DNA of 64,000 nt from Umbilicaria muhlenbergii. Lineage: Eukaryota > Ascomycota > Lecanoromycetes > Umbilicariales > Umbilicariaceae. Made by a program: the position numbers and the translations under genes. Location of the stretch: positions 744,001 through 808,000 of the forward strand of contig KK106986.1 in NCBI GenBank assembly GCA_000611775.1, in the 5' to 3' direction. Positions 27,552 through 60,592 of this stretch are shown here, piece after piece. The stretch's first letter is position 1. Each line of letters starts with the position of its first letter. The notes under the pieces were generated by a model. That model saw only the letters and a program-made list of their open reading frames with translations. It had not been told where the DNA came from and ran no database searches.

Positions 27552-30500
27552 CTACCTGAGGCATTTCTTTATGCTCTGCTCGAGAATCTGTCCCAGGATT
27601 TTTGCCTGAAAGCACAAAGAAATTAGTATCTCATCGGGCCGATAACTTCTGCATGTGCAAGTCAACAACAAGGAGAACCTAGACTCACTTTGGGTGGCAT
27701 AACCATAGAAAAGTGATCAGCGTCGTCTACCACATAACACTCCACATCTCCAACTAGTGTATCCCACCCATTCGGCCCGAAAGCTGATCTCTTTGCATAG
27801 AACCACGACTTCAGCCCGGTCTCACCATCGTCCATGACATTCCCCGAAGACGCCTCATCAACGGACTGCGAGCTTCTAGCACCAAGACTGAGTGGATCAC
27901 GACGTTCAGATTCACTCAACCCTTTATTGGCCCAGATTATGAAGCTGTGATCTGGACGGCGGGAGGGGTCCATGGGTGTAGGCTTGTAATATATGAGCGC
28001 TTTCACGGTGCTAACGAGATGCTGCTTCAACTTCTGCGATGCTGGAGCCTGGGATTGGCCACTGCGATTGATGCCTGTGAACAGACCTGCTGACTGAATC
28101 AAGTCAAGGGTTGGCTCGAGTGCGTCCGGCATGGCCCTTGGGACACGCATGTCAATGAGAATAAGGCCAAGGATCCGTTCATTCTGCTCTAGAAGCTGGC
28201 GCGCGACCTCATAGGCGTATACCGCTCCTGCTGACCAGCCACCCAGAAGGTAAGGGCCTTGCGGTTGAATCTTACGCATTGAGGCGCAATACATACGACA
28301 GACTTCCTCGACACTGCATTTATACTCTTCAGGTGCATGCAGGAATGGTGACTCTAGGGCGTAAATACGATTGCCTGTGGAGAGGGCTGGCAGATGAATG
28401 TATGCTGTTGCGGAACCAGCGCCATCCGTGACGAGGAAAAGCGGATTCACCTTGGACGAAGCACGTCCGCGAACGAGAACGGCATGGCTGGAGCGCTCGA
28501 CGGTGTTTTCTTGCGAGAGACCATGACCGATGTCAGGCATCGACCTACCACCCTCCTCGCGCGGATTTGTGGTGTCTTCTTTGCTAGAAGGAGTTGATTC
28601 CATGGACCGGAGCAACGCGCTAGTGGGTGTAACATCCTCGGCCTTCTGCGGTGTGCCTGGTGTCTCGTCACCACTAAGGCTAGCGGAACCGCTTGATGAA
28701 AAAGACGTAGTTTCATTCATCTCGGGCATGGAGTCAATAACTGCGGAGTCAATAACTGCGGAGTCAATAACCGCCGAGCCAGGCGTATGAGTGGACTTTA
28801 GAGCCGTCCCGAACTCTCCTCTTACATCTGACACCATGGGATGATCGTTGAAAAAGCTTGCTGGAAGTTCCACATTCATCTGTTGCTTGGCCGCTGAGAT
28901 AATTGCAATACTCATGAGAGAGTCTACCCCCATGTCAGAGAATAATGTGGAAGGCTCCATGTCCGTGATGTCATATCCAGACTGTGAAGCGACGATGTTC
29001 AGTAAGATGTCTGCCATGTCTGGCTCTTCACCGTCGCCAGTTGAAGTTTGGGATGAGGTAGCCTTGGTGCTTGTTCCAGAGACCGACGGGCTACTGCTCT
29101 CAGATTTCAGGAGACTCCCGCTCACAAGGTCCGATTGGGTCTGCGAATTGTCCTTCACAGCGGCATTCGTGGATTGTCCCTCCTTCCTTGGCGCGGTCTT
29201 CAAAGGAGCCTGCCCGAAGATAACCTGTAAAACCTTCTTCGTCATCTTACGGAAGTAGATGCCAGAGCATAACGCGACTAGTCTGTCACCTTCAAACACA
29301 TAGACGTCGCCTGAAAAGAGGTCTTTCTTTTCATTACTTTGGATGGAGACGTAATTGATGTAAGACTTCGTTTCCGAGAGCTCTTCGAAGATGTGCAAAG
29401 CTTCAAAGCCAGCAGAGATGTAAGCAACATCGTTTGAGTTGTTGACATTCCCATTCAGCACGAATCCCGCCAGATGGATTATCGAATCAATCCAATAAGG
29501 ATTTTGGGTAAAGGTACCAGCTTCTGCGCTTGGTCTGAGTTTGACGCGAGCAGCAGCATCGCTACATGCGTAGTCTAAGAAGACTTCTTCAAGGCCCTGG
29601 TATTTATCGCTGTAGTCCACCAGACTAGCGAACAATCTGTAAACGATCGGTCGTTGCAAGCGATGGCAAAGCCCAGCAACTGCGGATTTAGTGAGGTCAT
29701 CCATCCTTTTCTTCACAAAGGGCAGTGTGCGAGAGAAACTGGTCTTCCATTCGTCGTTCCTGCCAAACCGAACATCGCAGCCCCCATGCTCATGGCAGGA
29801 GCTTCCCTCCTTAGACGTAAAAGAGATGTGCACTGTGTCGACATCCTTCGAGGACGTGACAGCAGTCACCTCAATCATCTGTTGCGGATTGCGTTGAGAA
29901 ACTACTAGTGGGTGCGTGATTTCCAGGGCACAAAGCGACATTTCAGGCACCTGCTTACCACCTTTTGCCTCCACGAAAACGTACCTTGCCGCGGTGAATG
30001 CCATGTCGCAGAACACGCTGGCAGGACAGATTGCAGTATTGTCAACTGAATGGCCCTGAATTGCGTCGAATAACTTTGGCTCCGATGTGAGGGATGAGAA
30101 GGTGACTTTAACTTTGTTATCTTCGAACATCTCTTTCTCAACATACTGAAGACAAGTGGTCGCCAGGGGTTTCTTCTCAGGTGTTGTTACAGGCGTATAA
30201 GTGACCTGGTTGGCTCCTGGAGCTATCAAGTCTTGTCTGTATGATGACCAGTAATCCTTGAGGTCGAAGGCATACGTGGGTAGTTGGAGAAGTGTAAGGC
30301 AGTTGACGTACTCCCGATGATACTCGGTCCACGCGATCGGGACCTTTGACATGTATGCTGTGGCAGCCGCAGAGGAGATCGTTTTCCAATTGTCCTCCCC
30401 CGATTTGATGGTTGGGATTAGCCTCGCGGATGAGACTTCGATGCTCGATCGAACCATGCCCATGCATACCGGGTCAGGCCCAATCTCGATCCACAGGGTC

Positions 30501-33500
30501 TGCTCGTCCACAGAGCCTCGTGATATGCAAGCCTGTAGAGCGCCGACAAAATTAACTCGCTCCCGAGCCTGCCGTGCCAAATATTTGGGCGTGAAGATTC
30601 CTGCATTGTCCACGATATCGCCAGTGAGAGTTGAAGCTATGGGAACGAGGGGTCTGGCAAAATGAATACCTCTGGCACTGGCTTCTAGATCTTCCAGAAG
30701 AGGATTCATCTGAGAGGAATGAAAGGCGTAGGGAACTTCCAGGAATTTCGTCTTGATTCTGATGGCCTGCAAGACCCCCTGGAGATTGATGAGGTCTTCA
30801 AGTGTTCCACTGACGACTGACATATCTGGGGCGTTCCTGCATGAGATCTCACAAGAGACAAAGCTCTGTGTGCTCATGATTTCTTCGATGGTTTCAACGG
30901 ATGCTCCTACCGCAAGCATTGCGTGGGATCCTGCAGTGCATTTTTCGTCCATCATCGATGCCCGTCTTCCGACAAGATACAGCGTGTCACTGACGGACAG
31001 TACTCCGGATACGCAAAGAGCAGCGTACTCCCCAAGGCTATGCCCTATGAGTAGATCCGGCTGCACGCCCCATGATTTCCAAAGCTCCGCAAGCGCAATT
31101 TCAAGGAATACTATGGCCAACTGAAGCTGAACAACAGTCTTCGCCTTCGTATCCGCATTGCCATCTGCGATCAGATCTACAACTAGAGGAAGGCCTTGAG
31201 AGTCGCATATTTTCTGGCAGGAGAGAATGCTTTCCCTAAACCTGGGGCAGGTCTCGAAAAGCTGTTTTCCCATGCCTGGGTAGAGTGAGCCTTGTCCTGT
31301 GAAAGCGAAGACAACATTACTGCGACCGCGTACTGACTTGGCCCGAGCTTTGGTGGATTCCTCAAGGTCCCTGGTGAGGAGACGAGTGAGATCTTGAGAC
31401 GTACGCGCGACGTATGAAGATCTGAAGACGTCATGCATACGCCGAGCAGTTGTGGTGTAAGCTATATCCGAGACTTTGGATTCAGGATGAGCGCTCAAGT
31501 ATTGCAGTAGCCGCTGCTGATTCTCCTTCAGTGAGTAAGAAGTGCGCGCAGAGCATACCACTACATGATGCGTTCGCGGATCCTGCCCTTTCTGCGGTCG
31601 ATGAGGAGGATCTTCGAGGATCAGGCATGTATTGCCTCCCTGTTGAAAAGTCAGGACGGTTATATTACTGCCATTTGGAGAGATATTTTGGGACGTCAAT
31701 CTTACAGCGGCATCAAAGTTGTTCAGAAGAAGCTTCTTCTTTCCATCACCCGATGGACGAGCTTTGAAGGACGTCTTACCCGCCGCTACCTTGATGTGCA
31801 TCCTGTCCAACGGTGGAAACTTGGAATTCAGTTGGAAGGGCATTCCGGGCTGAGGCGGGATTAGGCCCTCTTGAAGAACCATTACTGATTTGATCAGGGA
31901 GGTGATACCAGCTACCTACAAGATAGGTTAGTGATAAGCTCATCTGCAAGTAGTATTCTTGGATGCTGACGGCTTCCCCATGTCCAACGTTTGCCTTTAC
32001 GGCCCCGACAACGAGAGGGTTGTCTTTGGTACGCCCCGCACCGAAGGCGCCTATGACCGATTGCATTTCAGTAAAATCTCCATGTTGTGTTCCGGTCCCG
32101 TGCATCTCGATGTAGCCTATATCAACAGGATTTAAGCTCGCTTGATGCAGGACCCGCTTGTATAGCTTGATCTGCGTTTCTGCATGAGGTTGAGTGATCG
32201 AAGCAGCATCTGCAGAGTAAGTACGTGCAGAGGTGTTTATGACCGCTTGGATATTGTCGTTGTCCGCGATTGCATCTTCCAGGCGTTTCAGAACGACAAC
32301 AGCAACTCCCTCACCACGGCAGTAGCCATCTGCGTCGTCCCGAAATGTTTTGCAGCCGCCTGTAGGAGATAGAAATCCTCCTCGGCTTAGGCCTGCGTAA
32401 ATTCCCGGTGCAGTCATAATTGATCCGCCGCCTGCAAGCGCAGTGTCGCACTCGCGAGCTATCAAGGCAGAGCAAGCGAGATTGACAGCGGTGGTGCCTC
32501 CAGCACAAGCGGCGTCTATGCTATGTGATGCTCCTTCCCACTTGAAGTGGTAATTCAGTCGGCCTGGAGTGAATGCGCGTGCTACACCAGGAATGTAGTA
32601 TATATCAACTCCTTGGCACTCGTTGATAGTCCGCCAATCGTCAGTGGCTTGGGCAATGTATGTCGCAATGCGTTTGGAATCTGTGGAAAGACTACCATCC
32701 TGTGTGTAGCCTGCCGTTTCCATAGCTTCATAGCTCGTCATTAACAGCAGGCGCTGCAGAGGATCCATTTGAGCGGCTTCCCGCGGTGACACGTTGAAAA
32801 GGCGGCTATCGAATAGGCCGGGATGTTCGAGAAAGCAGCCATATTGAGTTGTCATACTGTTCTTCAGGGTCCCATGGGGATCAAAGTGCGCCTCAACATC
32901 AAATCGGGATTTAGGGATCTTCGAAATGGGTCAATATAACCCGAACCCTTTATTTCTGACACATTTAGTCTCACTCACCTTCTTGTGAAAGTCCCGACCA
33001 TTCTGGAGCGTGTCCCAGAACTCCTCAACGCTGTCACTTCCCGGGAATCTTCCAGACATACCAACGATAGCAACGAGATCAGACCCCCCTCGAAGTTCAC
33101 GCACAGGCGTCAAAGCCTCTGCATGTAGAATCAAATTCACCTTGATGTTTGCATCCTGCAAGGTGCCTTGCACCAACTTTGTATGCGCTGTCGGCCCGAC
33201 AACAATCAAGTCCACGTCTCCTTTTCCCCTGAGGTCCGAAATGATGGATTGAACCGTATCGGTAAGGCGTAAGGTGTTCTGGGTGATGTCCGGGATCATC
33301 CGATGCAGCAGAGCACCCAGGTCGTTGGCCACGTATGGCAGAACGGTGCTGGACGAAATGATTCGAGCTTTTGCAGAAACTGGCGTCTTCAATAAAATAG
33401 ACTGCCCAATGATGTTCTCCATGTCTAGCATTGGGAGATGGGCTGCATGAACTGCTGCGTTGGCGGCAAGTTTAAGCTTTGGGGCCAATCCCAGCTCGGG

Positions 33501-34272
33501 GGAATAAGACCAGAGCTCTGTGAGGACGGACGGTGGCCCAAAAACTGTTGTCCAGGTATGCGATGAGACAGCCACAAAGACGTGCCTGTGCTCAGGGACA
33601 TGCTAATCTGGTAAGCTGTTTATCTCACATTAATCAGACAAGAAGATACCTGGTTTTGATGGAACCGATCAATGATTGCCTGTGTTTCTTCGGCGTTCGC
33701 CCCAACTATCGTATAAGCCCAAGATCCAGGAGCTTCTTCAATCCTTTTCGACCGAGCGGTGATTCCTGCTGCGAGACGGACGGCGATAGCGACAACTTCG
33801 ATGCCATATTTGAGTAACTCGTCAGTGTTCTTTGCTACAGCCGCTACTGCTGCAGGAAGAAGGCCTGTGCAAAGACCTAGCATGTGCACCACCGAGTCCG
33901 AAGGGTCCAGGATACTCGGATCATTCTCGGCGTAACTGCGATATTATCAGCGAGCGATGTAGACTAAGTGTGAGCCACCACTAACATCAGGAGTTGACCC
34001 AGTCGTACAATGCACATCAAAGTCGTCCCAACTACCTCATCCGCATCTTGCTTCGCATTCTCTTCCGCTAACGAGAGAAAGCTGTCAAAGGCCACAAATG
34101 CTTTGCGAGTTTCAAGGCTCAACTTCGCGACCTCTGTCTGAACGACGTCTGTAGCGTCTCGAAGGAATCTCCGAAGCAGCGGAGAATTCCTGGAGATACG
34201 GACAAGGTCTTGAACTGAAGGAAGCTTTTCGACTGTTTGATCGCCAAATAGGAGAAGACGATGAGGTGCCAT
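27552..34272 (-). CDS. Non-reducing polyketide synthase, SAT-KS-AT-PT-ACP-TE
   Basis: Seven exons (34272-33986, 33935-33650, 33602-32979, 32918-31971, 31915-31706, 31639-27689, 27605-27552) join to 2119 residues. In order: SAT with GLCTG (Cys118); KS with active Cys537 in DAACAGG and later HGTGT and NVGHGEA; malonyl-AT with GHSLGE (Ser986); product-template domain with His1315 (IQGHSV) and Asp1504 (YWIDSI); one ACP with GVDSL (Ser1692); thioesterase with GGWSAG (Ser1921), Asp1948 and His2094. All catalytic residues are present. The SAT should accept an acyl starter from the divergent HR-PKS, and the enzyme then forms an aromatic (resorcylate-type) ring released by the TE. Intron 31640-31705 is in frame and open, so naive models insert 22 false residues. 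The last 17 residues come from a 54-nt final exon. Lactonisation, hydrolysis or Claisen release by the TE cannot be told from sequence. Confidence 0.93.
28731..28775. repeat. Three 15-bp tandem repeats in the ACP-TE linker
   Basis: Three copies of a 15-bp unit (plus strand GAGTCAATAACTGCG, last copy with two changes) encode SAVID-SAVID-SAVID at residues 1741-1755 of the NR-PKS. Being a multiple of three, copy changes keep the frame and only alter linker length. Confidence 0.9.
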
Positions 34273-34827
34273 TGTTATCTAAAGGGTATAAGTTCATGCA
34301 AGTTCCCAAACACAAAGAAGATGGCTAAAGAGTCAGCCAGAGATGAACCTTAAGTATTGGGGAATCTCAAGAAATGCTAAGCTTTTCTAATCGTAGAACG
34401 ACGTTTAGGATAGAGGGCAATAGAAGTGTTGAGACCTGACACAGTAGCTCTCATCACTGACTTTGTACTGGTTGCAAAGAACAGATGCAGGTGGAAGCGC
34501 AACAAAGAACTTTTGTGTCAGCACAGTGACCGTCGGAGCTTGAACTTGAGCTTGTCCATCTCCACAATGTCTGATTTAAAGAGTCGGGCATGACCGGATG
34601 ACAAGAGCACGTGGGAAATCGCTGCATGTGATGAGTCAAGAGCATCCTCCTCAAGAGCATCAACTTGCCCTAATGCAGTGAGGCCTGGGATCTTGTCAGC
34701 TTTTCGGAAGGACTTCGGACCTACTGGACTTCACTAAGCGCTTGAGCGAATGCTTGCTCACTATCCAGTAGTTTGCGCAGATCTTTGTCGTGGTCTCGGA
34801 GAACGCGCGATAGCTGAGTAAGAAGGC

Positions 34828-34853
34828 ACTTTCAGGATGAACTTTCAGGATGA
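34828..34853. repeat. 13-bp tandem repeat in the PKS intergenic region
   Basis: ACTTTCAGGATGA occurs twice back to back. It lies about 560 bp upstream of the NR-PKS start codon. Function unknown. Confidence 0.8.
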
Positions 34854-35488
34854 AACACTAGGTAGGTCATTACTAATCACCATCTGTGCGTCATCTCAAA
34901 GTCAAAACCAGACTCAAAATCTAAGAATGGTTCAGGGCGTGCCTAAGGGATTGGCGGTGAGGTTGTAGATGCTCTCGCCAGGGTTCACAGCAGACTTGTG
35001 ATACCTTACTTTAAATACTATATAATACAATACCAAGCACGTCAATCCTGCCTTACAGGGTATCGCGTAATATACTACTGCACTGAAGTCCTTCGTGACC
35101 GGATGCAACGTGGGAGAAGCGCAAGGATTCCCCGTACGCACGGTCCAACAGCTATCAACCAGGCACGTGCCAGATAAGGCGCGCTGTGTCTCTTTAGTCA
35201 TGCAAGCCACCAAACCTGGAACCAGGGATCATTCTGGCATATCTTCAGCCTCATGAAATCCACTTCACACCGCTTGTTGTAGGGGATTCTCCACACAACG
35301 TTCAATTCGCTATGCTTGATACCATTGTATGATAAGCACTCTGGCAGCAAGGGTTCGTCCCCTACTGCTACTCACATGCAGGGTGACCACGCGGCGAACA
35401 GCTACCTTCCCTGTCTTGCAGTAGCTTCATATTGCACGGAAAATCGGCATAGTTCGGACCAAAGCTAGCAGTCCGCTGTGCGGATACT

Positions 35489-35500
35489 CGGTACACTCCG
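35489..35500. promoter_or_regulatory. Candidate Zn2Cys6 factor site CGG-N6-CCG
   Basis: CGGTACACTCCG is an inverted CGG pair with six-base spacing, the layout bound by some Zn2Cys6 regulators. It sits about 515 bp upstream of the HR-PKS start. No such regulator gene is in the window, so any cognate factor would be encoded elsewhere. Confidence 0.35.
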
Positions 35501-36015
35501 CGACAAAGAACAGATTCCGGACTTTTCAGTAACGGCAGAAGATGAAGGTGCTTCGTTGGAGCGTGTCAGCTGAAGAATCTGACTGCATGTTGATGGCTTC
35601 TATGCTTCTCACAATCCATTCCTTTGCGAGCATGTCATCAAGTGGTGCGCCATTGGACAATCCACCTCGTATCCAGGAGATAATCCGTTCACGTGGAAGC
35701 TTCTCTCAATGTGCAGATCTGGCCGTACTCTACCCTGAAATAGTGTTGGGAAGTAACGGCCTGGGGGCTTTTCAGTGTCAGCACTACCTCTATCTTACTT
35801 ACTTCTGGTTCCTTGTCCTGTCTGCTGTTTCCTCCGGATTCTGTGACTTAAGTATCCGTGGCTATACCGTCTTCAGTTGATATTTGTCGCGTGCAAGCAT
35901 TGTTTAGCCTCAACAACAGCTCGCTAGCAAGCGTTATGGTATTGTTGATCTAACATAATTTTCTGGTACTAATTCTGGAACTTGTTGCGACCGGTTCACA
36001 GACTGCAGCTTCATC

Positions 36016-39000
36016 ATGAAATATTCACAGAGACCTGAGGTATCAAGCTCAGTTGCGGATGAGTTGAATTCAGTGGCCGTCATTGGACTTGCGTGTCGGT
36101 TTCCTGGTGACGCATCAAATCCGGCAGAGTTCTGGGAGCTTCTTCGCAATGCCCGATGTTTGTGATACTTGTCTCATATGGCCTTTAAGGTCTGCCAATG
36201 CTGTGCTGACTATATCTCCTCCAGCTGCCTATTCAGAGCCGGATCGGTTCAACATGGACGGTTTCCATAGTGCCACCAAAGGCAGATTAAACACCAGTAC
36301 ACCAAGAGGAGCTCACTTCCTTCGCCAAGATGTTGCCGCGTTCGACGCGAATTTTTTCAGTATCAGCCAGAATGAAGCCATGGCCATGGATCCACAGCAA
36401 CGTCTTATGCTGGAGGTTGCATACGAGGCTTTTGAGAGTGCAGGTTTGCCTCTCGAAGCCATTGCGGGAACCGATACATCTTGCTACATCGGAAACTTCA
36501 CCACCGACTACAGGGAAATGCTATTCCGTGATCCAGATTCAGCACCGCTGTACGGCATGAGTGGGACGGGCTCGGAGCTGCTCTCGAATCGTGTCTCCTG
36601 GTTCTATGATTTGAGGGGTCCTAGCTTTACCCTCGGCACTGCTTGCTCATCAACTTTGGTAGCCCTCCACCAAGGCTGTCAGAGCCTTCGAACGGGCGAG
36701 TCAAATATGGCTATTGTCGGCGGCTCGAACCTCCTGCTGAACCCTGATATGTTTATGGCTCTGTCGAATCAAAAATTCCTGTCCCAGGGTGGACGTTGTC
36801 GGAGCTTCGACGCTGGGGGTGATGGTTATGGTCGCGCTGAAGGCTTTGCCGCCGTGGTATTGAAAAGGGTCAGCGAGGCCGTCCGAGACGGTGATCCCAT
36901 TCGAGCCGTGATTCGTGCTACCGCAGTCAATCAGGACGGGAAAACAAAGGCAATCACAGTTCCAAGCGCCGAGGCCCAGGCAGATTTGATTCGCTTGACA
37001 TATCGTTTGGCCGGGCTTGAATTCAAAGACACACACTACTTCGAAGCTCATGTTGGTTGCGGTGTGCATAGCTCCAGTAGATACAAAAGCTTACTGAGTC
37101 ATAGGGTACCGGGACCAAAGCAGGCGATCCGTTAGAATTGGAGGGAATCTCATCAACCTTAGGTGCAGCGCGCGAGCCTGGCAACAACATCATCGTCGGT
37201 TCTGTCAAATCAAACGTGCGAAGGGACCCCTCGTTCCCTGGTCGGAAACATTGAAACTGACAAAATCCCAGATCGGACACCTGGAATCAGTTGCTGGCCT
37301 GGCCGCTCTTATCAAAGGAATTTACATTCTTGAGAATGCTATAATCCCACCAAACCTCAACTTCCAGCAGCCCAATCCGAAGGTCCCATTCGCGAAGTGG
37401 AACATCAAAGTCCCTACCGAGTTAACCCCGTGGCCTCGTGAGGGACTTCGACGATTAAGTGTAAGCTGAAGCTGCCTCCACCCTTGTATCAATCATTTTA
37501 CTTATGCGGGTATTGATACTAATATTCTAATCGTTACATAGATTCAATCATTCGGCTATGGTGGTAAGAAATGGAAACCGGATCATTCTATCTGTCTATA
37601 TTTTGCCCAGACTAACGTAATCAGGTACAAATGCACACGCTATTGTCGATGACGCCTTTCACTATCTAATGGAGAGAAATCTCAAAGGTGTTCACTTCAC
37701 CAAGCCATCCAGGGGGCCCCATACCTACAGCATACCCATACTCGCTCAAGAAGATCCTTCCATGCTCATCGGCCCCACGAAAGATGCGCGGAAGCTTAAA
37801 GCGGCCAAGTCGCAGAAGAAGCTCAGATTGTTCGCTTTCAGCGCTCAAGATAAAGATGGTCTAGCACGACAAAGAGACACTTTTGCCGGTTATCTAAAGA
37901 ACCACCGGCTCCAACTTACTGCAGGTGCGCAAACAGAGAATCTCCACCTTCGAGATTTAGCCTTCACCCTCAGCGAAAAACGCTCTCGGTTGGCATGGAA
38001 AACGTTTGTGGCTGCCTCGTCTACGGATGAGCTCGTTCGCAGCTTGGCGAACAATACTGCCGATATACCCGCTATCAGGTCAACCGGCGAGCCCCGCGTG
38101 GGCTTCATTTTCACCGGACAGGGCGCTCAATGGGCCAAGATGGGTATGGAGCTTCTCGATTATCGAATATTCCGCGAGAGCATTGAGCGAGCAGATGAAT
38201 ACCTCCGCAGCGCTCTTGGTTGCCCTTGGTCAGCCGTGGAGGAAATGTGCCGCGACGAAGCTTCATCAAATATCAACCTTCCTGCTTACAGCCAGCCTCT
38301 TTGCACAATACTTCAGATTGCTCTAGTTGATCTACTAGAATCTTGGAATATTGTACCTTCTGTGATAGCTGGACATTCGAGTGGCGAGATTGCTGGAGCA
38401 TATTGCTTAGGGGCACTGACTAGAGAAGATGCTCTGAAGGTCGCTTACTTCAGAGGACTCCTGTCGTCTCAGATGAAAAAGCTTTCGCCGCCACTGTACG
38501 GTTCAATGTTAGCAGTTGGTGCTTCTGAAGAAGAGGCTCAAAGCTGGATATCTCAACACGCTGCTGGAACGGTGGTTGTGGCCTGTGTCAATTCGCCGTC
38601 CAGCGTCACCTTGTCTGGAGACGCGTCCGGAATTGAAGAGATGCATGCCTTGCTTCAGGAGGCAGGGGTTTTCGCCCGAAAACTGAAGGTAGATACTGCT
38701 TATCACTCACCGCACATGGAAGTCATATCGGTACCTTACCTGGAAGCGATGAGGGACATCCAGACACGGCCAGCACGAGATTCCCGGAAGATGTACTCAG
38801 CTGTTTCCGGACTACTTGCAGAGCCCGACGAGCTTGGTGCTATGAACTGGGTGCGGAACCTAACGTCTCCCGTCTTGTTTTACGATGCCGTGCTTGAACT
38901 TCTGCTGCCAATGCAAGCTGAGACGCAGAATACAGAGCCTGCTGTGGATCTACTCCTTGAGATTGGTCCACATTCTGCGCTCCGAGGTCCAATCAACCAA

Positions 39001-42000
39001 ATCATGAAGCGACACGGTATCAAAGGTGTCGATTGCCAATCTGTCATCTCTCGCGGGCAGAGCGGGATTAGCACAGCTCTAGCTACTGCTGGGGTATTGT
39101 TCGCCCAAGGCGTACGTGTGGATATTTCTCAGGTCAACAACGATAAGGACAATGCTTTCATGGGCCCACCTCGACCACTGGTCGACCTTCCACCATACTG
39201 CTGGAATCATTCGCGCACCTTTTGGGCTGAATCCCGCATCTCGAAACAGTATCGTTTTCGCAAACACCCCCCACGCAGTCTACTTGGCGCACCTTACCCA
39301 GATCATGCCGAAACAGAACGGCTCTGGAGGGGATTCCTACGTATCTCTGAAGAGCCTTGGGTTCGCGACCATCAAATTCAATCGTCGATCTTATACCCAG
39401 CTGCGGGCTACATAGCTATGGCCATTGAGGCAGCCCATGAGACGGCAGCCCCAGGCCAGACTATTAGAGACTTTAAGATGAGGGATATTCGTTTGATTGC
39501 GCCTGCCGTAATAACAGAGGAATCTAATTTAGAGTGCATAGTACAGCTTCGCCCTCATTTGACCGGCACTCGGGATGAATCTTACGCGTGGCTAGAGTTC
39601 ACCGTTTCGACATGCGACAATGGACAGGATTTGCGAAAGAACTGCTATGGCTTGCTTCAGATTGAGTATCAATCCGCGGAAGAAACGAGAATGAGCCTCG
39701 AGAAGGACCTGGAAGATCATGAATTCAAAGAGCGGTATATTGAAGCTGAGAGACTTTGTCGGACCCCGGAAGACCCAAAAGATTTCTACCGAGATCTTGC
39801 ATCTGTAGGTCTCAACTATGGACCTACGTTCCAAAATGTCACACAGATCCGCAGGCGCAACGGTCAAAGCTGTTGTGCTGTTACCATTTCAGATCCAGGA
39901 TCCCAAGAGATGTACGAGAAGATGGAAAGACCCCATATTATCCATCCGTCGAATCTCGATGCTATGTTTCACGCAGTGTTTGCTGCATTCAAGCACCAGG
40001 AAGAACGAATGAAAGAGGCCATGGTTCCTAAGTCCATTGACGAAATCACGATCTCCGCCAGTATTCCATTCAACATTGGAACACAGTTCAGAGGATACTC
40101 TAATGCTTCCAAGCACGGCTTTCGTGAACTCATGGCAGATCTGATTATGTTGGATGAGAGTCTGATCAGACCAGTCGTGATAGTTAAGGGCTTCTGCTGC
40201 GCAGCGATATCTGGGACGGGTGAGACCGAGGATGCAGGACTACAGTCCAACGCTGGGAGATTATACAGTGAATTGATCTGGAAGCCAGCGATCGATCTTT
40301 GCTCCCCAGAGGAAAGACGATCTATAACAAATGCGATTTCTCCAGGGGTTATGTCGTCTGAGTCATCGAAGCTGCTCGCCAAATCGGAGGCTCTTGCTCT
40401 TTTCTACATTCGCCGCAGCATAGAGCAGCTGACGGTTGGCGTGATTCCTACATCACACCTTCAAGACTTGTACAACTGGATGAAAAAGCAGCTGACTACA
40501 GATCATACGCGCAAAAACCCCACTCCAGTCTTGAAGCAGGGTTATCGAGGGGTGGACGAGAATGAGGCAGAGTATCTCCAAGCGGAGGTTAGGGCAGGTA
40601 GCATCGAGGGACAAGCTCTTTGCCACATCGGGAAAAACATTGAGCAAATTGTCCTCGGTAAAGTCGATGCAGCAGAATTGTTGCGCGAAAATGATCTTTT
40701 GGACCCCCTTTTGGCGGAGCCAAGAGGCATGAATGAGTGCCTCAAAAAGATGAGCGAGGTGTGTTTTATGGTTTTGACCAGCTTTGAAATGACAGAGCTG
40801 ACTACCGTAGTTCCTGAATCTTATGACACATGCTAATCCCGATGTTTCAATTCTGGAACTGGGCTCATCAGCAGGAGGGACTGCTTCATCGATTTTCTCA
40901 TCATCGACGGCCCATAACAGCGTTCCTCAACCATTTGGCTATGTCTTCACGAGCCCAAACGGCAGCGCTTTGAGAAAGGCAGAGGAACACCTACAGCTCT
41001 GGAAAGACCGCATGGAGTTCAAAACACTAGCAATCGATAGAGACCTTAGTAGTCAAGGATTTGAGAACGCAGCGTTTGACGTGATCGTGGTTTCTAATCT
41101 CCTGACAGGCGCGGAGAATCCTAGTGAAGTTCTAGCAAGATTGCGGAAGCTTCTCAAGCCCGGGGGAAAGCTCTGTCTTGTGCATCTCACAAATCCCAGC
41201 ATGGGACTTTCACTAGTGCTTCGTTGTTTGTCCAGCTTGAACAGGTAAGAGAAGTATCGCTGTCAATTATAACCTTGCTAATATGAAACAGCCAGGAGAA
41301 GCAGGGTCATCACCTTGGTTTGATGGGCAGTGAGCCCTTAGAAGCTTTGCTGAAACATAATGGCTTTACCCCTGATTTCTGCGTTGCAGATTTTGAAGAC
41401 AATCTACACCAGCAGCTGAGTGTAACGGTCGCAACAACTGGCGTGGGCCTCGAGAGTAGGACGCCAGAGCATGAGATTACCATTTTAGAGGCTCCGAAAC
41501 CCTCCATGGCGTCCCAGACTCTAGCCTCTAAGCTCGCCATCGAGCTTGAAAAGCAGGCGATCAAGGTTAAAAGAACGAAATGGGGTCCGGACATTGCGGC
41601 GTTGAAGATCAAGGAATGCATTTCACTTCTGGAGCTAGATATGCCATTTCTTCTCAGCTTGGGCAATGATGACTTTACCTCACTGCAACAGGTGGTTATA
41701 CAATGTTCAAGCCTCTTATGGATCACCGCCCTAGACGATCCCGCCGCAAACCTGGCACCTGGAATGGCTCGAAGCATACGGAACGAAATGCCGGGCAGAC
41801 GATTTCGTACCCTGTCACTCCGATCAAAATCGTTGGATTCGCCAAATGAGTTAGCTCAACTTGTGAGGAGGCTTGCTACGACAACGACGACTGAAGATGA
41901 ATTTCGAGAAGAAGCCGGCCTACTCAACATAAGTCGCGTTGTTAACAGCATATCGATGAATGAAGACATGTCGCGCTTACTCACTCCTGAAAAAGATAAC

Positions 42001-44251
42001 ATTGACCTCATGCCATTAGAGCAAGCAGATGGGCCGCAGAAACTAGCCATCAGGGCACAGGGCATGCTCGACACAATATGTGTAGAAGCGGATGTCATGA
42101 GCACAAGCGATCTTGGAAATGACGAACTCGAGATTGAGGTCAAGGCAACAGGACTAAAGTAAGTTGAAAGTCCTCGGGCTATAATTCCATGAGCTCACGC
42201 GATCCAGTTTTCGAGATATCATGGTCGCAATGGGACAGATTCCGGACAATCTACTGGGCTTTGAAGCTAGTGGGATCGTCAGTCGTGTTGGGAAGGACGT
42301 CACGCGATTCAACGCTGGCGACAAAGTCTGTACCTTAGGTCATGGCGCACACAGAACTCTTTTCCGGAACAAAGCCCAATTCTGTCAACCCATCCCTGTC
42401 GGCCTCTCGTTTGAGGAAGCAGCGACACTGCCCCTCGTTCACTGCACAGCATTCTATTCGCTCGTGCATGTCGCGCGTGTGCGGCGGGGGCAAACGATCT
42501 TGATCCACGCGGCAGCTGGGGGTGTAGGGCAGGCTGCGATCCAGCTTGCTAGATACTTCGGCTTGGAGATTTTCGCGACAGTCGGGTCAGAAGATAAAAG
42601 ACAGCTAATTGAGGAAATGTACGGAATCGAACCTGATCACATCTTCAACTCTCGCGATCTCAGTTTCGCAAAAGGAGTCATGCGAATGACGAAGGGACGA
42701 GGCGTAGACTGCGTCATCAACTCCTTGTCTGGAGAGGCACTCCGCCAGAGCTGGCAGTGCATCGCGGCCTTCGGGAGCTTCGTCGAGATCGGCATGAAAG
42801 ATATCTTGAGTAATACTGGTCTCGAAATGCGTCCATTTCTTCAAGATGCTAGCTTCACTTTTTTCAACTTGAAGCACGTCTTGAATGACAATCCAAACTT
42901 GATGGCTGAGATTATAGAGGGCACGTTCGACTTCTTGCGCCGTGGGATCATCAAGCCAGTGTCACCGGTGACAGTGTATCCAATCTCAGAGGCCGAAAAC
43001 GCATTCCGATTAATGCAGACAGGCAAGCACCGAGGAAAGGTGGCTTTGAAATGGGCTGGAACAGACGTAGTGCCGGTGCTACACCGTATCAAAAGCTCGC
43101 TCAGATTGGACCAAAACGCCACATACCTACTGGTAGGAGGACTGGGCGGAATAGGTCGAAGCCTAGCAAATCTCCTCGTCGACCTCGGGGCACGCCACCT
43201 GTGCTTCGTATCTAGGTCCGGCAATGCATCAGAATTAGCGCAGAGACTGATCCATGATCTCGAGAGTCGAAAGGTCCAAATCAAAGTCTACAGCTGTGAC
43301 GTCGCCAACAAGGAAAGCCTCTCACAGACGCTCCGCCAGTGCTCCGGAACCATGCCGGCCATAAAAGGCGTGTTCCAATGCGCAATGGTACTCCGCGACA
43401 GCCTCTTCGAAAGAATGAACTACGAACAATGGACATCGTCCCTGCGCCCTAAAGTCCAAGGAAGTTGGAACCTCCACACCCTCCTCCCCCGCGACCTAGA
43501 CTTCCACATCACACTCAGCTCCTTCGCCGGCATCTTTGGCAACCGGAGCCAAAGTAACTACGCCGCCGCAGGCGCATATCAAGATGCACTCGCCCACCAT
43601 CGTCGGGCGCAGGGACTCAAAGCCGTGACTGTCGATCTAGGCATCATGCGCGATGTAGGGGTTATTGCGGAAAAGGGGGCGACCGACTACCTCCAAGAAT
43701 GGGAAGTACCGTTTGGAATGCGAGAGGGCGAGCTGCACGTGCTCATGAAGAAGATTATCGCCAGTGAGATGAATGGCGAGGGTGGAGTGCCGGCACAGAT
43801 CATCAACGGCTTGGCCACACGTGAAGCTGCTCTCGTAGCCGAGGTCCGACGACCGTTCTATTTCGACGACCCACGCTTTTCGATCCTGGCCAACACGGGC
43901 GCATCGACGCGGCAAGATGCGTCGGCGGGGGTTAACGGGACGGCGACTCTACGGGAGCAGCTGGAACATGTAGACTCCTTGGCGAGCGCGGGGAGGGCGG
44001 TCACGGATGCGTTGGTGGCTAGGGTAGCGAAGTCGCTGCAGACGGAACGCTCCGAGATCGACGAAGGCAGACCGCTGCATTCGTATGGGATCGACTCGTT
44101 GGTCGGGGTGGAGATTGCGAACTGGGTGTTCAAGGAGACAAAGGTGGCGGTGTCTGTGTTTGATATTCTGGCTACGCAGTCGATCACTACTTTCGCCAGT
44201 CATGTGGCCGAAAAGTGTCCCTTCCTCCCTGCGGATATTGAAGGGAAGTAA
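36016..44251 (+). CDS. Highly reducing polyketide synthase, KS-AT-DH-(MT)-ER-KR-ACP
   Basis: Nine exons (36016-36157, 36225-37051, 37105-37215, 37272-37460, 37542-37563, 37625-40758, 40811-41244, 41292-42158, 42208-44251) join to 2589 residues with consistent phase. KS: Cys188 in GTACSST, then EAHGTGT and NIGHLES, the last two restored only by splicing. AT: GHSSGE (Ser682). DH: His1013 in VRDHQI and Asp1209 in [11 protein letters not shown] methyltransferase-like region at about 1476-1760 has [10 protein letters not shown] where active C-MeT domains have a GxGxGG loop, so it is probably inactive. [13 protein letters not shown] (2009-2019). KR: GGLGGIG (2219-2225) and Tyr2360. ACP: GIDSL (Ser2539). 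No release domain, as expected if the chain passes to the SAT of the divergent NR-PKS. A fully reducing set (KR, DH, ER) is present, so saturated stretches are possible. Confidence 0.93.
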
Positions 44252-45004: not shown

Positions 45005-45660
45005 TTACGATCGGAAATTTTCAATGCCAAAGTCCTCCGTTTGATTCTTACGGGCTATGGCAAGAGCACCGAGAACCAGTGGGATAGGCAAGATGGCTAC
45101 CGTCGCCAAAACATGTAACTCCGTGAACCTCTACATCTCTTGAAGTGTGAAGTTTGCCCGAATCCAATGTGCAGAAAGACGCCACGATGAAATCAACCGC
45201 GAGAAATACGCGTTTCACAATCAGGGAGTAGATAATGATGAAGGTACTTTTGAGACCTGGATACCAGCCCGCCTTGGGGTGCAGAGGCCTGAGTATTCGT
45301 TGTGCCAAATTGAGGTTGACGACGAAGCCCACCACATTCCCTATGGAAACAAGGAGTGAGGCGGCTATAGTGACGGAAACGCTTTGTGATTTAGCTCTTC
45401 GTACGATTTTCAATATACAAGCTGTGATGGGAGCCATGCAAAAGCCAATCATGGTGCCAGACATGATAAATATAGGACAACGTTTGTGAATGATTCAGAA
45501 AACAGACATGGCCAATGGCGTGGAGAAGAAAGAGAGAAAGAAAGACTGAGGTGACCGGCACATCGAGTGAGAAAGTTGGCAAGCCTCGGGGCACTGATGC
45601 GCAGGGAGATCATTGTGGTGAGAGAGATCGCTCTTGCGTCTGCCATAAAATCAACTGTCA
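45005..45660 (-). pseudogene. Broken membrane-protein gene, DUF3112-like
   Basis: Fragments of one polytopic membrane protein lie in order on the minus strand but in different frames. They are LPTFSLDVPVTSVFLSLFLL and following, then MSGTMIGFCMAPITACILKI through NLAQRILRPLHPKAGWYPGL to FIVASFCTLD, then LATVAILPIPLVLGALAIAR to a stop at 45005. At least two frame changes separate them (near 45,490 and 45,105), and the 5' end is unclear. Hydrophobic segments and the AQRILR...HPxxGW motif resemble fungal DUF3112 proteins; RTA1-like exporters are a second possibility. No splice sites explain the shifts. It sits inside the PKS island and may once have served it. Confidence 0.62.
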
Positions 45661-45801
45661 TTCCTTCGTGCAGGGGTTTGGATGAGGAATCAAAGGATTC
45701 TCTGCGGCGAGGGAGATCGCTCTTGCGTCTGCCATAAAATCAATTGTCATTCCTTCGTGCAGGGCTTTGGATGAATAAACAAAGGATTCTCTCCCCCGAA
45801 G
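45624..45801. repeat. Imperfect 89-bp tandem duplication
   Basis: A segment starting GAGATCGCTCTTGCGTCTGC at 45624 recurs at 45713 with a few substitutions, giving two adjacent copies with an 89-bp period. The duplication overlaps the 5' end of the broken membrane-protein gene and may mark the event that disrupted it. Confidence 0.85.
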
Positions 45802-48407: not shown

Positions 48408-50204
48408 TCAGTAGGCTCTTTCCGTCAACTTGACCATCAAAGGCTTAGGCTCATAACCAAGGTAAGCACGCTGGTTAGGCCAATCCCGGTCCGCCTTGTC
48501 GACTAACTCTAAATCAAAGGCCCAGACGACCCTGGAAAGAACGACTCTTAGTAGTGCGAGCGCAAGTCTGATCCGTGAATCTCTGTCAGCATTACCTCAA
48601 AGCATTTGAGTCGTGGGATGTTGATTTCGGCCAGAACAAATGTGAGCGGGAAACAAGATGGGAATGGGGTGGGAGAGTGGAACGTACTTCTGTCCCATAC
48701 AATTCCTAGACCCTATTGAAAAAGGGTGGAAAGCATCCTTGTCGTCTTTCTCGAAACGAGCATCGTATCGAGGATGAGTCTTCGGCAACCAGCGTTCCGG
48801 GTGAAACGTATCGGGGTCAACGAAGTTGCTGGGCGAATGAAATGTTGCGTGTGCCGGGACTCCGATGACGGTCTGTAAAGACGTTATCAGCCAAGCTTGC
48901 AAAGGAGCTGCTCTTTGAGTGAACTGTTGGGTTGGAAGAACCTACTCCTCCGGGGATCCAGTATCCATCGACACGCTGGCCACCGGAAGCGACTAAGCGG
49001 GGTTTGGGATCAGAAGGAGTTGGATGGTGAATCCGAAAGGCTTCCATGATGACGGCTTCCAGGTACGGCAACTCCTGCAATGACGCAACATTGATATCAT
49101 TCTCACTTTCAAACCTTGTCCGAATCTCATGACTGAGAGCATTGATGGTTTCGGGATAGAGAGCCAGGTAATAAGTAGCAGCAGCGGCGGCCGCAGTAGA
49201 TAACTGGCACCCGGCGAGTAGCATTGATATAACATTTATATTGAGCTCAGCCCGTGTAATGCCTTTCTTATGCTCCTCATCCAATCGCCCAATGATTGGG
49301 CTGATAAGGTCGGATTTGCCGGGCCCCAGGTCTCCAATCCCAAGCCGCCGAGTAATCATGTCGGTTCCGATCTTCAAGTTCCTCTGCCTGATCCTTGACG
49401 TCAGTCGCAGAAAGACATAGCCGACAATGTAGTCCAAAGGATAGAAACGACTCAAGCTAGTCCTAATAGAGCCGAACTTCACGCCCAGAAAAAAACCCAG
49501 GACCCAAGAATGCTCACGATCAGGGTCTAGACTTTGAAAAGAATCACCCAGTGCGAGCTCGCCCATTATGTCGAGAGTGGTGTAACCATAGTACTTTGCG
49601 AGGTCGACTTTGCGTTGGTCACCTTTGACAATGTCATTGCGTAGTCTCAGAATCAAGCGACTGGCATAAGATTCGATTACAGGCGACTGTTCCCGCAACG
49701 CCTTGTCCGAAAAGGCGTTGGCGAAGTTACGTCGGAGGCGAGCGTGTGTCTCTGCTTCTGCCGAGAAAAGAGTTTCTGCTCCATTTGGTGGCGGCGTTCG
49801 GGTGTAAGGGTCTTTAGGGAGCCCGGGACGTTTCTGATATATGTCTCTCCATCCTCCAGATGTAGCTATGGTAAGCTCGTCCGGAGCGGTACGTACAATC
49901 GGGCCATATTCGGCGTGGATTTTGCAGATGTACTCGTGTGATTTACCTCGAAAATGGGCGCGAACGAAGGGGAGGCGCGAGATAGCTGAGGTTTTCGGGC
50001 CAGGGAATTTCGCTAGGGGGTGGAAGTAGATGTTGTAGATAGCAGAAATAACGTAATACTAAAGAAGTGCGTAGGTGATTAACATGGTTGTTGATTTCGG
50101 TTGGGAGAGGAAGATCTCACCAAAACGAACACAGCCAGCACCGTTGCAACTGAGGCACTGAAAGTAGGAAGAGAGATCTGCCAGAGGGCGCCGAGGGTGT
50201 TCAT
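48408..50204 (-). CDS. Cytochrome P450 monooxygenase
   Basis: Four exons (50204-50121, 50058-48946, 48872-48688, 48582-48408) join to 518 residues, a full P450 length. An N-terminal membrane anchor precedes the hinge YFHPLAKFPGPK. The K-helix has EAFR (367-370), the PERW motif is present, and the haem loop is FSIGSRNCMGQ with ligand Cys457. The I-helix is unusual: LAGCQLSTAA at about 309-318 replaces the usual AGxET-T, so the acid-alcohol pair for oxygen activation is missing. The last intron (48583-48687, 105 nt) is longer than the others, and the residues right after the haem loop (KDSRIRLALALL) fit the family loosely, so the 3' model is less sure. It is the only tailoring gene of the island that can be read intact; the substrate is presumably the PKS product. 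Confidence 0.78.
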
Positions 50205-51163: not shown

Positions 51164-52687
51164 ATGGTTCTCTCGACCACACCCCTCGGATGGCTCGGCC
51201 GCATTGTGATTATGGTAAGTCAAAACCTTCATGTAATGATGTTCTGCTCGTTGATAGGCCTCAGGCCGCGGTTATGACACTCGCCAAGGTCCTCAGTTTG
51301 ATTATCTACAATCTTTACTTCCATCCTCTTCGTACGTTTCCGGGGCCCAAGCCGCAGCAGGTACACCTATTCCTATTGCATGGCGCATGTTGAGTGGTAA
51401 CATGATCTGGGGACAACCTCACTTCATGAACAATACGGTGACGTGGCTCGTATGCACCCAGACGAATTATCCTTTGTCGGGTCAAGTGCCTGCCAGGACA
51501 GCTACAACTCCCGTCCACGATTTCCAAAATCGGAACTGGGGACAAAGGTATCCCCACATGGAGTGCGTCCCCTACCTACAATCACGAACATAGAGGACCA
51601 CAACCGGCAGCGACGTATACTTAGTCATGCCTTCTCTGACCGCGCCTTAAGAGAGCAAGGATATCTTCTGCAGAAGTACAGTGATCTTCTGGTTGGCCGC
51701 TTACATAACCAGGTAGAACAAGGGCACAGCACTGTCGATATCTGCGCATGGTACAATTTTGCTACTTTTGGTATCATTGGTGATATATGTTTTGGCGAGT
51801 CCTTCCATCGCCTCGAGACCGCGGAAAGTCATCCTTGGATAGCCTTCATTTATAGGTTTCCGAAGTTCGGCAAGATGCTCACTGCTTTCCAGCATTTTCC
51901 ACCGAAGATAAAGTCATACGGTGGGCTCTCCTTTGATTTCTTCTGGATAGGGTTTGGCAGATTTTCGATTGGACTTAGGAGAAGATTATGAAGTCCATTG
52001 AACGGAAGTCTGAGAGACCGGACTTTATGGTACGTTCTGGAGAACAACCATAAGCAGGGGATGACGAGGGATGAGATCGACTCGACAATCTCCATTCTGG
52101 TGCTCGCGGATAGCGGTGTTACAACGTCCACAGCTTTAGTGTCTACAGCCTACTTTATTCTTAAAACCGCCAGGGTGATGAGTCGGCTGCAGAAGGAGAT
52201 CAGAGACGCTATGCGAAACGACCCGAAAAACATCACATCCGCAGCCCTATCAAGCCTCCCATTTTTGCACGTGGTTCTGCTAGAAGCCATGCGAATGCAC
52301 CCCCCAATCCCCATTGATGTTCCCAGAGTGGTGGGCAGGCCAGGAGTTGAAATTTGCGGTATGCCGGTTGCCCAAGGATACCGGGTTGGCAAAGACAGCT
52401 TATCCGCTCCCGACCAAGTGGGTTGACTCTTATGAGTTCCTTCCAGAACGGTGGCTCTCGGATGCCGATCCGCGTTATGCCAATGATGCCAAAGCGATCT
52501 GCGAGCCTTTCCGGGTAGGGCCTAGAAATTGCTTCGGAAGAAACCTTGCGTGGGCTCAGATGAAATTGATATGGTCCTTCATCTGGAGCACTCGGAGAGT
52601 AATCAAGAAGGGGACTGGACCGACCAGAAAGTGTACCTCCTGAATGAGAAATTGCAAGTGTATGTCAAGCTTCTGTCAAGGTCATAA
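51164..52687 (+). pseudogene. Decayed cytochrome P450
   Basis: A P450 can be followed from end to end but only by changing frame repeatedly. It starts MVLSTTPLGWLG, a 50-nt intron (51215-51264) follows, then IIYNLYFHPLRTFPGPK. Breaks follow: a frame change near 51350 before TPIPIAWRMLSGNMI; another near 51433 before VARMHPDELSFVG; TGA at 51934 and TAG at 51976 in the frame reading FLLDRVWQIFDWT then EKIMKSIERKSERPDFM; a change near 52029 before YVLENNHKQGMTRDEI; another near 52388 before TAYPLPTKWVDSYEF; and a last one near 52570 before GDWTDQKVYLLNEKL. The haem loop FRVGPRNCFG and PERW are still recognisable. Neighbouring synthases are clean over many kilobases, so sequencing error is unlikely. 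Confidence 0.85.
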
Positions 52688-59823: not shown

Positions 59824-60592
59824 ATGTCTTATTCCGCCCAACAACCCACCGTGAGCATTCCCGTCCCGGCGGTGAAGGGCAAAACTGACTAATGCTGGCT
59901 GGCTTAGTACTACTACGACCCCAACCAGAATTACTACAACCAATCATCCCAAGCTGGACCCTTCTACGGCCCCAACCATGCTTTTAGCGATGCTTCTATG
60001 AACAGAGGATATTCCACGCAGAGCAGCACTTCACACAGCTCCGGTACCTCAGCTTCAAGCCCGGACTGTTACGGCCCATATCATTCACCAAGGCAGCTTC
60101 CCTACAGTCCCACCTACCCAGATAGTTATGACAGCACTCAACAATACCCCATCACTGCTCCATATCCATCTCAGCGACAGAAGCCTAGCAGGGCGGAAGC
60201 CAAGCCGACCAAGTAAGTTCTTCCTTCCCAACAATCTTTCGCCAGCCCACTTTCTTGTACACATGGTACACGTACGCTTCTTCTCTGCGCAGTCGTTCTC
60301 TTGTTTCCACTCATACCTTGAACGCTCCATACTGACACATCCTCTCTCTAGGATCTCAAAGTCGTACCCATGCCTCCACCCCGGGTGCACATCTCGGGCC
60401 CAATTCACCCGTGCGGCTGACTTGGAACGTCACCACAAGACCGTGCACTTTGTGGAAAAGAAGCTTGATTGCCCTGAGCGGTGGTGTGGGCGCGTGGGCG
60501 AGTACGGCTTCACCAGGAGGGATCATCTGATCGAACATCAACGAACCTTCCACATGCAGGATTTGCCGAAGAAGAAGCCCAGACACTCCTGA
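59824..60592 (+). CDS. Small C2H2 zinc-finger protein
   Basis: Three exons (59824-59850, 59908-60212, 60352-60592) join to 190 residues. The N-terminal two thirds are low-complexity, rich in Tyr, Ser, Pro and Gln (MSYSAQQPTYYYDPNQNYYN). Exon 3 encodes a C2H2 pair: YPCLHPGCTSRAQFTRAADL followed by ERHHKTVH, and then CPERWCGRVGEYGFTRRDHL with EHQRTFH. A basic tail KKKPRH could be a nuclear signal. The layout suggests a sequence-specific nuclear DNA-binding protein; targets are unknown. The second intron is 139 nt, longer than usual here, but its ends (GTAAGT, CTCTAG) are good. Confidence 0.82.

What the first reader, a model, noticed from the sequence alone, without database searches (positions are those of the whole stretch)
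27552..44251. Divergent HR-PKS / NR-PKS pair, both intact, with no described product assignable
Seen: full SAT-KS-AT-PT-ACP-TE and KS-AT-DH-ER-KR-ACP proteins with all main catalytic residues, facing away from a shared 1.74-kb promoter. Established: such pairs make resorcylic acid lactones or alkyl-resorcylates, the reduced chain being loaded by the SAT. Inference: this locus makes a fully reduced-chain aromatic whose identity depends on chain length and TE chemistry.
Basis: partly seen in the sequence, partly recalled or inferred. Interest (0 to 1): 0.75.

Follow-up and report, generated by a model that had tools for sequence, protein, structure and literature searches.

The report
Lichen fungus paired polyketide synthase genes
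A lichen-forming fungus carries two intact, back-to-back polyketide synthase genes of the kind that elsewhere make resorcylic-lactone-type compounds, while some helper genes beside them have decayed and the product is unknown; it is a good new example of a known kind of gene pair.

Summary
Two divergently transcribed genes are open with GT-AG introns: a 2,119-aa NR-PKS (SAT-KS-AT-PT-ACP-TE, minus strand, 34272..27552) and a 2,589-aa HR-PKS (plus strand, 36016..44251), 1,743 bp apart. The genome is Umbilicaria muehlenbergii: seven scaffolds, and a published N50 of 7,009,248 that equals contig C2 exactly. Of seven other NR-PKSs in the genome, the closest in all six domains compared is a two-ACP enzyme with the published architecture of the gyrophoric-acid PKS. 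PT residues, TE and this kinship make group I (resorcylic lactones, orsellinic acid) the best fit. No other HR-PKS was seen beside an NR-PKS. Helpers: one P450 that can be modelled open, one broken P450, one O-methyltransferase remnant. Best reading: a benzenediol-lactone-type or acyl-resorcylate pathway, product unassigned. 'Fully reduced chain' is not supported; lactone, ester and acid cannot be told apart. New member of a known kind. No reference lactone-synthase sequence was available, so the decisive phylogeny was not run.

The parts
27552..34272 (-). NR-PKS gene, 7 exons (34272-33986, 33935-33650, 33602-32979, 32918-31971, 31915-31706, 31639-27689, 27605-27552), 2,119 aa, SAT-KS-AT-PT-ACP-TE
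   Evidence: gene model; domains; residues
36016..44251 (+). HR-PKS gene, 9 exons (36016-36157, 36225-37051, 37105-37215, 37272-37460, 37542-37563, 37625-40758, 40811-41244, 41292-42158, 42208-44251), 2,589 aa, KS-AT-DH-MT(degenerate)-ER-KR-ACP
   Evidence: gene model; domains; residues
34273..36015 (.). shared intergenic region of 1,743 bp between the two start codons
40853..41176 (+). methyltransferase domain of the HR-PKS, SAM motif degenerate (ELGSSAGG), probably inactive
   Evidence: PF08242 43.5 bits (45.9); 7 of 7 fetched relatives have intact glycine motifs
29213..30160 (-). product template (PT) domain with H1315 and D1503; V/F/L/V, P and F at the six group-marking sites
   Evidence: TIGR04532; sites
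28826..29008 (-). single ACP of the NR-PKS
   Evidence: PF00550; one motif; the relative L028 has two
27713..28489 (-). TE domain, S1921 (GWSAGA) and H2094
   Evidence: PF00975 at 28444-27992
48440..50204 (-). cytochrome P450 that can be modelled open over its length (ends approximate)
   Evidence: PF00067 in two pieces; open model of about 530-540 aa by trying acceptor sites
51250..52640 (+). second cytochrome P450, broken (pieces in several frames, in-frame stop); remnant
   Evidence: PF00067 in three pieces; frames; 29% identity to the first P450
47830..48180 (+). O-methyltransferase remnant
   Evidence: PF00891, 20.5 bits, E 3.3e-4, just under the cut-off of 22.3; frames

Best explanation
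The two genes form a collaborating benzenediol-lactone-type pair. The HR-PKS builds a partly reduced, probably unbranched acyl chain (its methyltransferase looks dead); the SAT moves that chain onto the NR-PKS, which adds malonate units without reduction; the PT domain closes the aromatic ring, most likely by C2-C7 aldol cyclisation (C3-C8 not excluded); the TE releases the product, as a macrolactone if the chain carries a suitably placed hydroxyl, otherwise as an acid, ester or pyrone; one P450 may oxidise it. Shown: architecture, open frames, active-site residues, divergent adjacency, in-genome kinship. Inferred: partnership, chain features, ring register, release mode and expression.
For: Intact divergent pair with complete domains; no other HR-PKS seen near an NR-PKS in the genome, next nearest about 86 kb; PT sites exclude the C4-C9 group and the TE excludes group V; NR-PKS groups with L028, a two-ACP enzyme of depside-synthase architecture (UFBoot 95 on KS-AT-PT, TE split 100), and shares its KS-region intron places; group I holds the resorcylic lactone synthases; HR/NR tandems are the set-up of benzenediol lactones (PMC12721105).
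Against: No reference lactone-synthase sequence could be compared, so membership of the lactone clades is untested. The nearest relative is probably acetyl-primed. KS elbow DAACAGG and TE GWSAGA are unusual in this genome and, with a broken P450 and an O-methyltransferase remnant, could signal a pathway that is waning. No transcription factor or transporter was recognised between the borders (by eye; Pfam only on selected pieces). No lactone of this kind is listed among the metabolites of this species in the table that I saw (gyrophoric acid only).
Confidence: 0.65

Rival explanations
1. A reduced-starter orcinol-type synthase: the HR-PKS feeds the NR-PKS, but the TE hydrolyses or cross-couples, giving an alkyl- or acyl-resorcylic acid, an isocoumarin or a depside-like ester, not a macrolactone.
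For: Closest relative in the genome has depside-synthase architecture; group I TEs cross-couple as well as macrocyclise (PMC5591372, passages); non-lactone HR/NR products such as cladosporin and cytosporones exist (PMC12721105).
Against: The single ACP differs from the tandem ACP of the depside synthases. Nothing seen here separates the release modes.
Confidence: 0.35
2. A waning or dead pathway: the core genes are still open but no longer make a product, as the decayed tailoring genes suggest.
For: Broken second P450 and O-methyltransferase remnant; unusual KS and TE elbow motifs.
Against: About 4,700 codons open across 16 exons with the catalytic residues kept; one P450 can be modelled open.
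Confidence: 0.2
3. Two independent synthases that happen to be neighbours: the NR-PKS primes with acetyl and makes an orsellinate-type product alone.
For: Nearest relative is probably acetyl-primed; adjacency alone does not prove partnership.
Against: Divergent pair with a shared 1.74-kb intergenic region, the only such adjacency seen in the genome.
Confidence: 0.1

Closest known systems
Fungal benzenediol-lactone HR-PKS/NR-PKS pairs (zearalenone, hypothemycin, radicicol, dehydrocurvularin; related: cladosporin, cytosporones)
   Same: HR-PKS and NR-PKS side by side; NR-PKS with SAT, PT and TE of group I type; expected hand-over through the SAT
   Different: No sequence comparison with any of them was possible; lichen host; decayed tailoring genes; degenerate methyltransferase (whether the known ones share this was not checked)
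Lichen PKS16-type orcinol depside synthases (gyrophoric, grayanic, olivetoric acid candidates)
   Same: L028, the closest of seven in-genome relatives, has their architecture; identical PT residues at six marking sites
   Different: One ACP instead of two; partner HR-PKS; KS elbow DAACAGG; 48% identity in PT, 63% in KS to L028
Hypothemycin-linked singleton cluster in the Cladonia/Stereocaulon network (PMC8262933, Fig. 2 legend)
   Same: A lichen cluster joined by network analysis to a characterised resorcylic acid lactone cluster

Membership tests
Benzenediol-lactone synthase pair | adjacent intact HR-PKS and NR-PKS | tested here: met
Benzenediol-lactone synthase pair | NR-PKS with SAT-KS-AT-PT-ACP-TE and active-site residues | tested here: met
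Benzenediol-lactone synthase pair | HR-PKS inside the macrolactone HR-PKS clade; NR-PKS inside the lactone subclades | not testable with these tools
   no reference lactone-synthase sequences available; among the PDB sequences listed the nearest NR-PKSs are norsolorinic acid synthase and CTB1
Benzenediol-lactone synthase pair | TE closes a macrolactone | not testable with these tools
   needs biochemistry
NR-PKS group I (zearalenone/orsellinic acid) | PT residues not of the C4-C9 type; TE present (not group V) | tested here: met
   six PT sites V/F/L/V, P, F (against PMC5386248); TE
NR-PKS group I (zearalenone/orsellinic acid) | phylogenetic placement in group I rather than II, III, VI, VIII or IX | tested here: inconclusive
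   groups with L028 (UFBoot 95), itself assigned only by architecture; no outside references; absence of a C-methyltransferase does not strictly exclude VI or IX (PMC8262933)
Lichen PKS16-type depside synthase | SAT-KS-AT-PT-ACP-ACP-TE (tandem ACP) | tested here: not met
   one ACP in the window gene; two in L028; architecture from PMC9430680 section 7

The most novel reading that the evidence does not exclude
A lichen-forming fungus uses, or used until recently, a resorcylic-lactone-type two-synthase pathway beside its depside chemistry. Its NR-PKS shares an ancestor with the depside synthase line, lacks the second ACP, has a changed KS nucleophile elbow (DTACSS to DAACAGG) and took on a reduced starter from a partner HR-PKS, giving a compound not known from lichens.
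Probability: 0.2. Interest if true: 0.6.

Novelty: new member of a known kind. Interest (0 to 1): 0.35.

Why it matters
Umbilicaria muehlenbergii is described as amenable to Agrobacterium-mediated transformation (PMC3999499), so this orphan pair could be tested directly in a lichen fungus. It would show whether lichens make lactone-type aromatic polyketides beside depsides, and how starter choice and tandem-ACP number separate the two within one enzyme group.

Tried and rejected
A scan of viral contigs with the KS matched two patterns, neither a relative. A 5.8S rRNA search for taxonomy found nothing and an 18S search ended in a machine error; the species came from the published scaffold N50. 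The fatty acid synthase scored highest against 4v58, next 7q5s; I recall these as Thermomyces and Chaetomium, a weak hint only. GH7 cellulase was not found, but no control genome rang either, so it weighs little. A GC check of 28 kb from seven places gave 52% against a published 47.12%, which disagrees on its face; I suspect, without testing, that gap letters lower the published figure. Group IV (aflatoxin-like PT) was rejected on six PT sites; the PksA numbering was mapped by eye onto the alignment, and all six residues named in the paper fell into place. The script stopped at the SAT tree, so no SAT tree exists; its lost printouts were made again, which also filled the L025 PT sites (overwritten), the L031 KS elbow and the L044 methyltransferase. 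The structure-prediction tools were not used; they would not separate the release chemistries.

No paper assigning a resorcylic-lactone pathway to a lichen fungus by experiment was seen in my searches, which cover only openly licensed papers; I read the listings, and of the 16 papers I opened two (PMC9430680, PMC8262933) for passages. PMC8262933 mentions a hypothemycin-linked lichen cluster in a figure legend.
Full report
Observation. I rebuilt both genes from the DNA. The NR-PKS runs on the minus strand from 34272 to 27552 in seven exons (2,119 aa), the HR-PKS on the plus strand from 36016 to 44251 in nine exons (2,589 aa). All 14 introns are 47-83 bp with GT and AG ends, and neither model has an internal stop. 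The start codons are separated by 1,743 bp. Domain searches and motif positions confirm the architectures. The stop that the genome search saw inside the NR-PKS KS lies in the modelled intron at 32978-32919.

The HR-PKS is KS-AT-DH-MT-ER-KR-ACP. Its methyltransferase domain scores 43.5 bits (45.9 in the genome search), against up to 82.2 elsewhere in the genome. Its SAM motif reads ELGSSAGG and the HAT motif is missing. I fetched the matching stretch of seven other PKS loci: 7 of 7 have GAGTGG, GGGTGG or GAGTGS, and the 5 readable that far have HAT; two run into an apparent intron. The domain is therefore probably inactive, which suggests an unbranched chain (inference). In the NR-PKS the catalytic residues are present, but the KS elbow DAACAGG differs from DTACSS in 7 of 7 other NR-PKSs, and the TE elbow GWSAGA from GWS(A/L)GG in 5 of 5 other TEs (PF00975 found six TE loci). 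What these changes do is unknown to me.

Species. The genome has 34,788,950 bases in seven contigs; contig C2 is 7,009,248 bases long. A published table gives for Umbilicaria muehlenbergii JFDN00000000.1 34.8 Mb, seven scaffolds and N50 7,009,248 (PMC6337363, table passage). The genome announcement gives 34,812,353 bp, seven scaffolds and 20 PKS genes (PMC3999499, part 1 of 2 read). Another paper counts 8 NR-PKSs in this species (PMC9430680, section 6), equal to the 8 SAT-bearing PKS loci; a ninth SAT match, at C1:7336431, lies beside the fatty acid synthase alpha gene. The exact N50 match settles the identity to my satisfaction, although the total length differs by 23,403 bp and my sampled GC is higher than published. 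It is a lichen-forming fungus.

Surroundings. Conserved genes border the locus: a cyclophilin/TPR gene on one side (25.3-26.6 kb; TPR match, cyclophilin part read by eye), and D-Tyr-tRNA deacylase (53.7-54.5 kb) and NOT3 (55.4-57.1 kb) on the other. Between the HR-PKS and the deacylase lie a P450 that can be modelled open, a second P450 in pieces across frames with an in-frame stop and an O-methyltransferase remnant (PF00891, 20.5 bits, just under the cut-off of 22.3). An open stretch at 45.05-45.49 kb has no Pfam match. I recognised no transcription factor or transporter in the interval, by eye and by Pfam on selected pieces only. So the core genes are open while part of the tailoring set has decayed.

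Relatives in the genome. I compared the NR-PKS with the seven other NR-PKS loci (L025-L031). L028 scores highest in all six domains: SAT, KS, AT, PT, ACP and TE. Identities to L028 are SAT 43.6%, KS 62.5%, AT 56.3%, PT 48.3%, TE 47.8%; the next best values are 31.6, 55.5, 45.3, 36.0 and 41.0%. On KS-AT-PT the two group with UFBoot 95, and the TE tree, without the two loci that lack a TE match, separates them from the other four with 100. Breaks in the KS region fall at the same three places in both genes, before IPK, before AGITS and before GGNT; five other loci give the KS in one match and L025 in five pieces. L028 has two ACPs and a TE, the architecture given for the gyrophoric-acid PKS (PMC9430680, section 7); that it is that PKS is inferred. 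Among the KS loci no other HR-PKS lies near an NR-PKS; the next nearest that I see is about 86 kb away on C4. That search scores only its best candidates.

Which group. PMC5386248 (passages) names PT residues that mark C4-C9 enzymes: Gly, Met, Met and Ala at PksA 1491, 1495, 1498 and 1499, and Ala 1397 and Leu 1622, replaced in other groups by bulkier residues, Pro and Phe. Aligned to PksA, ours has Val, Phe, Leu, Val, Pro and Phe; of the seven relatives only L028 is the same at all six. A TE rules out group V. Absence of a C-methyltransferase speaks against groups VI, VII and IX but does not strictly exclude VI or IX (PMC8262933, passages). Single ACP, partner HR-PKS and kinship with L028 favour group I, which holds resorcylic lactone and orsellinic acid synthases. 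[quoted passage not shown]

Mechanism. Most likely the HR-PKS product is handed over by the SAT, extended and cyclised by the NR-PKS, and released by the TE. HR/NR tandems of this kind make resorcylic and dihydroxyphenylacetic lactones and also non-lactones such as cladosporin and cytosporones (PMC12721105: passages and the first parts of sections 3 and 4). PMC9114375 (passages) reports the HR-PKSs of benzenediol lactones in one well-defined subclade. I could not place ours in it, because no reference sequence was available.

Novelty. The pair is a new member of a known kind. Other papers were seen in passages only: PMC5635595, PMC10512267, PMC5591372, PMC11024724, PMC9116485, PMC12115441, PMC12711211; PMC9146135 had no hit for my terms (41). 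Of PMC6337363 I also read section 8. A hypothemycin-linked lichen cluster is already in print in a figure legend (PMC8262933), so a lactone-type cluster in lichens is not without precedent. The value lies in tractability: this species can be transformed (PMC3999499).

Noticed in passing
window 28730-28771: Perfect 15-bp tandem repeat (2.8 copies) in the NR-PKS, coding a repeated VIDSA in the linker between ACP and TE, where the relative L028 has its second ACP.
   Followed up: partly
window 32487-32513: NR-PKS KS nucleophile elbow DAACAGG instead of DTACSS found in 7 of 7 other NR-PKSs of the genome; meaning unknown.
   Followed up: partly
window 45620-45792: Tandem repeat of an 89-bp unit, 1.9 copies, 92% matches, between the HR-PKS and the helper-gene remnants.
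   Followed up: no
window 45051-45494 (-): Open stretch of 148 codons with hydrophobic segments, no Pfam match; perhaps the remnant of a membrane protein.
   Followed up: partly
window 59908-60589 (+): Open stretches that read by eye like a C2H2 zinc-finger protein, beyond the housekeeping border of the cluster.
   Followed up: no
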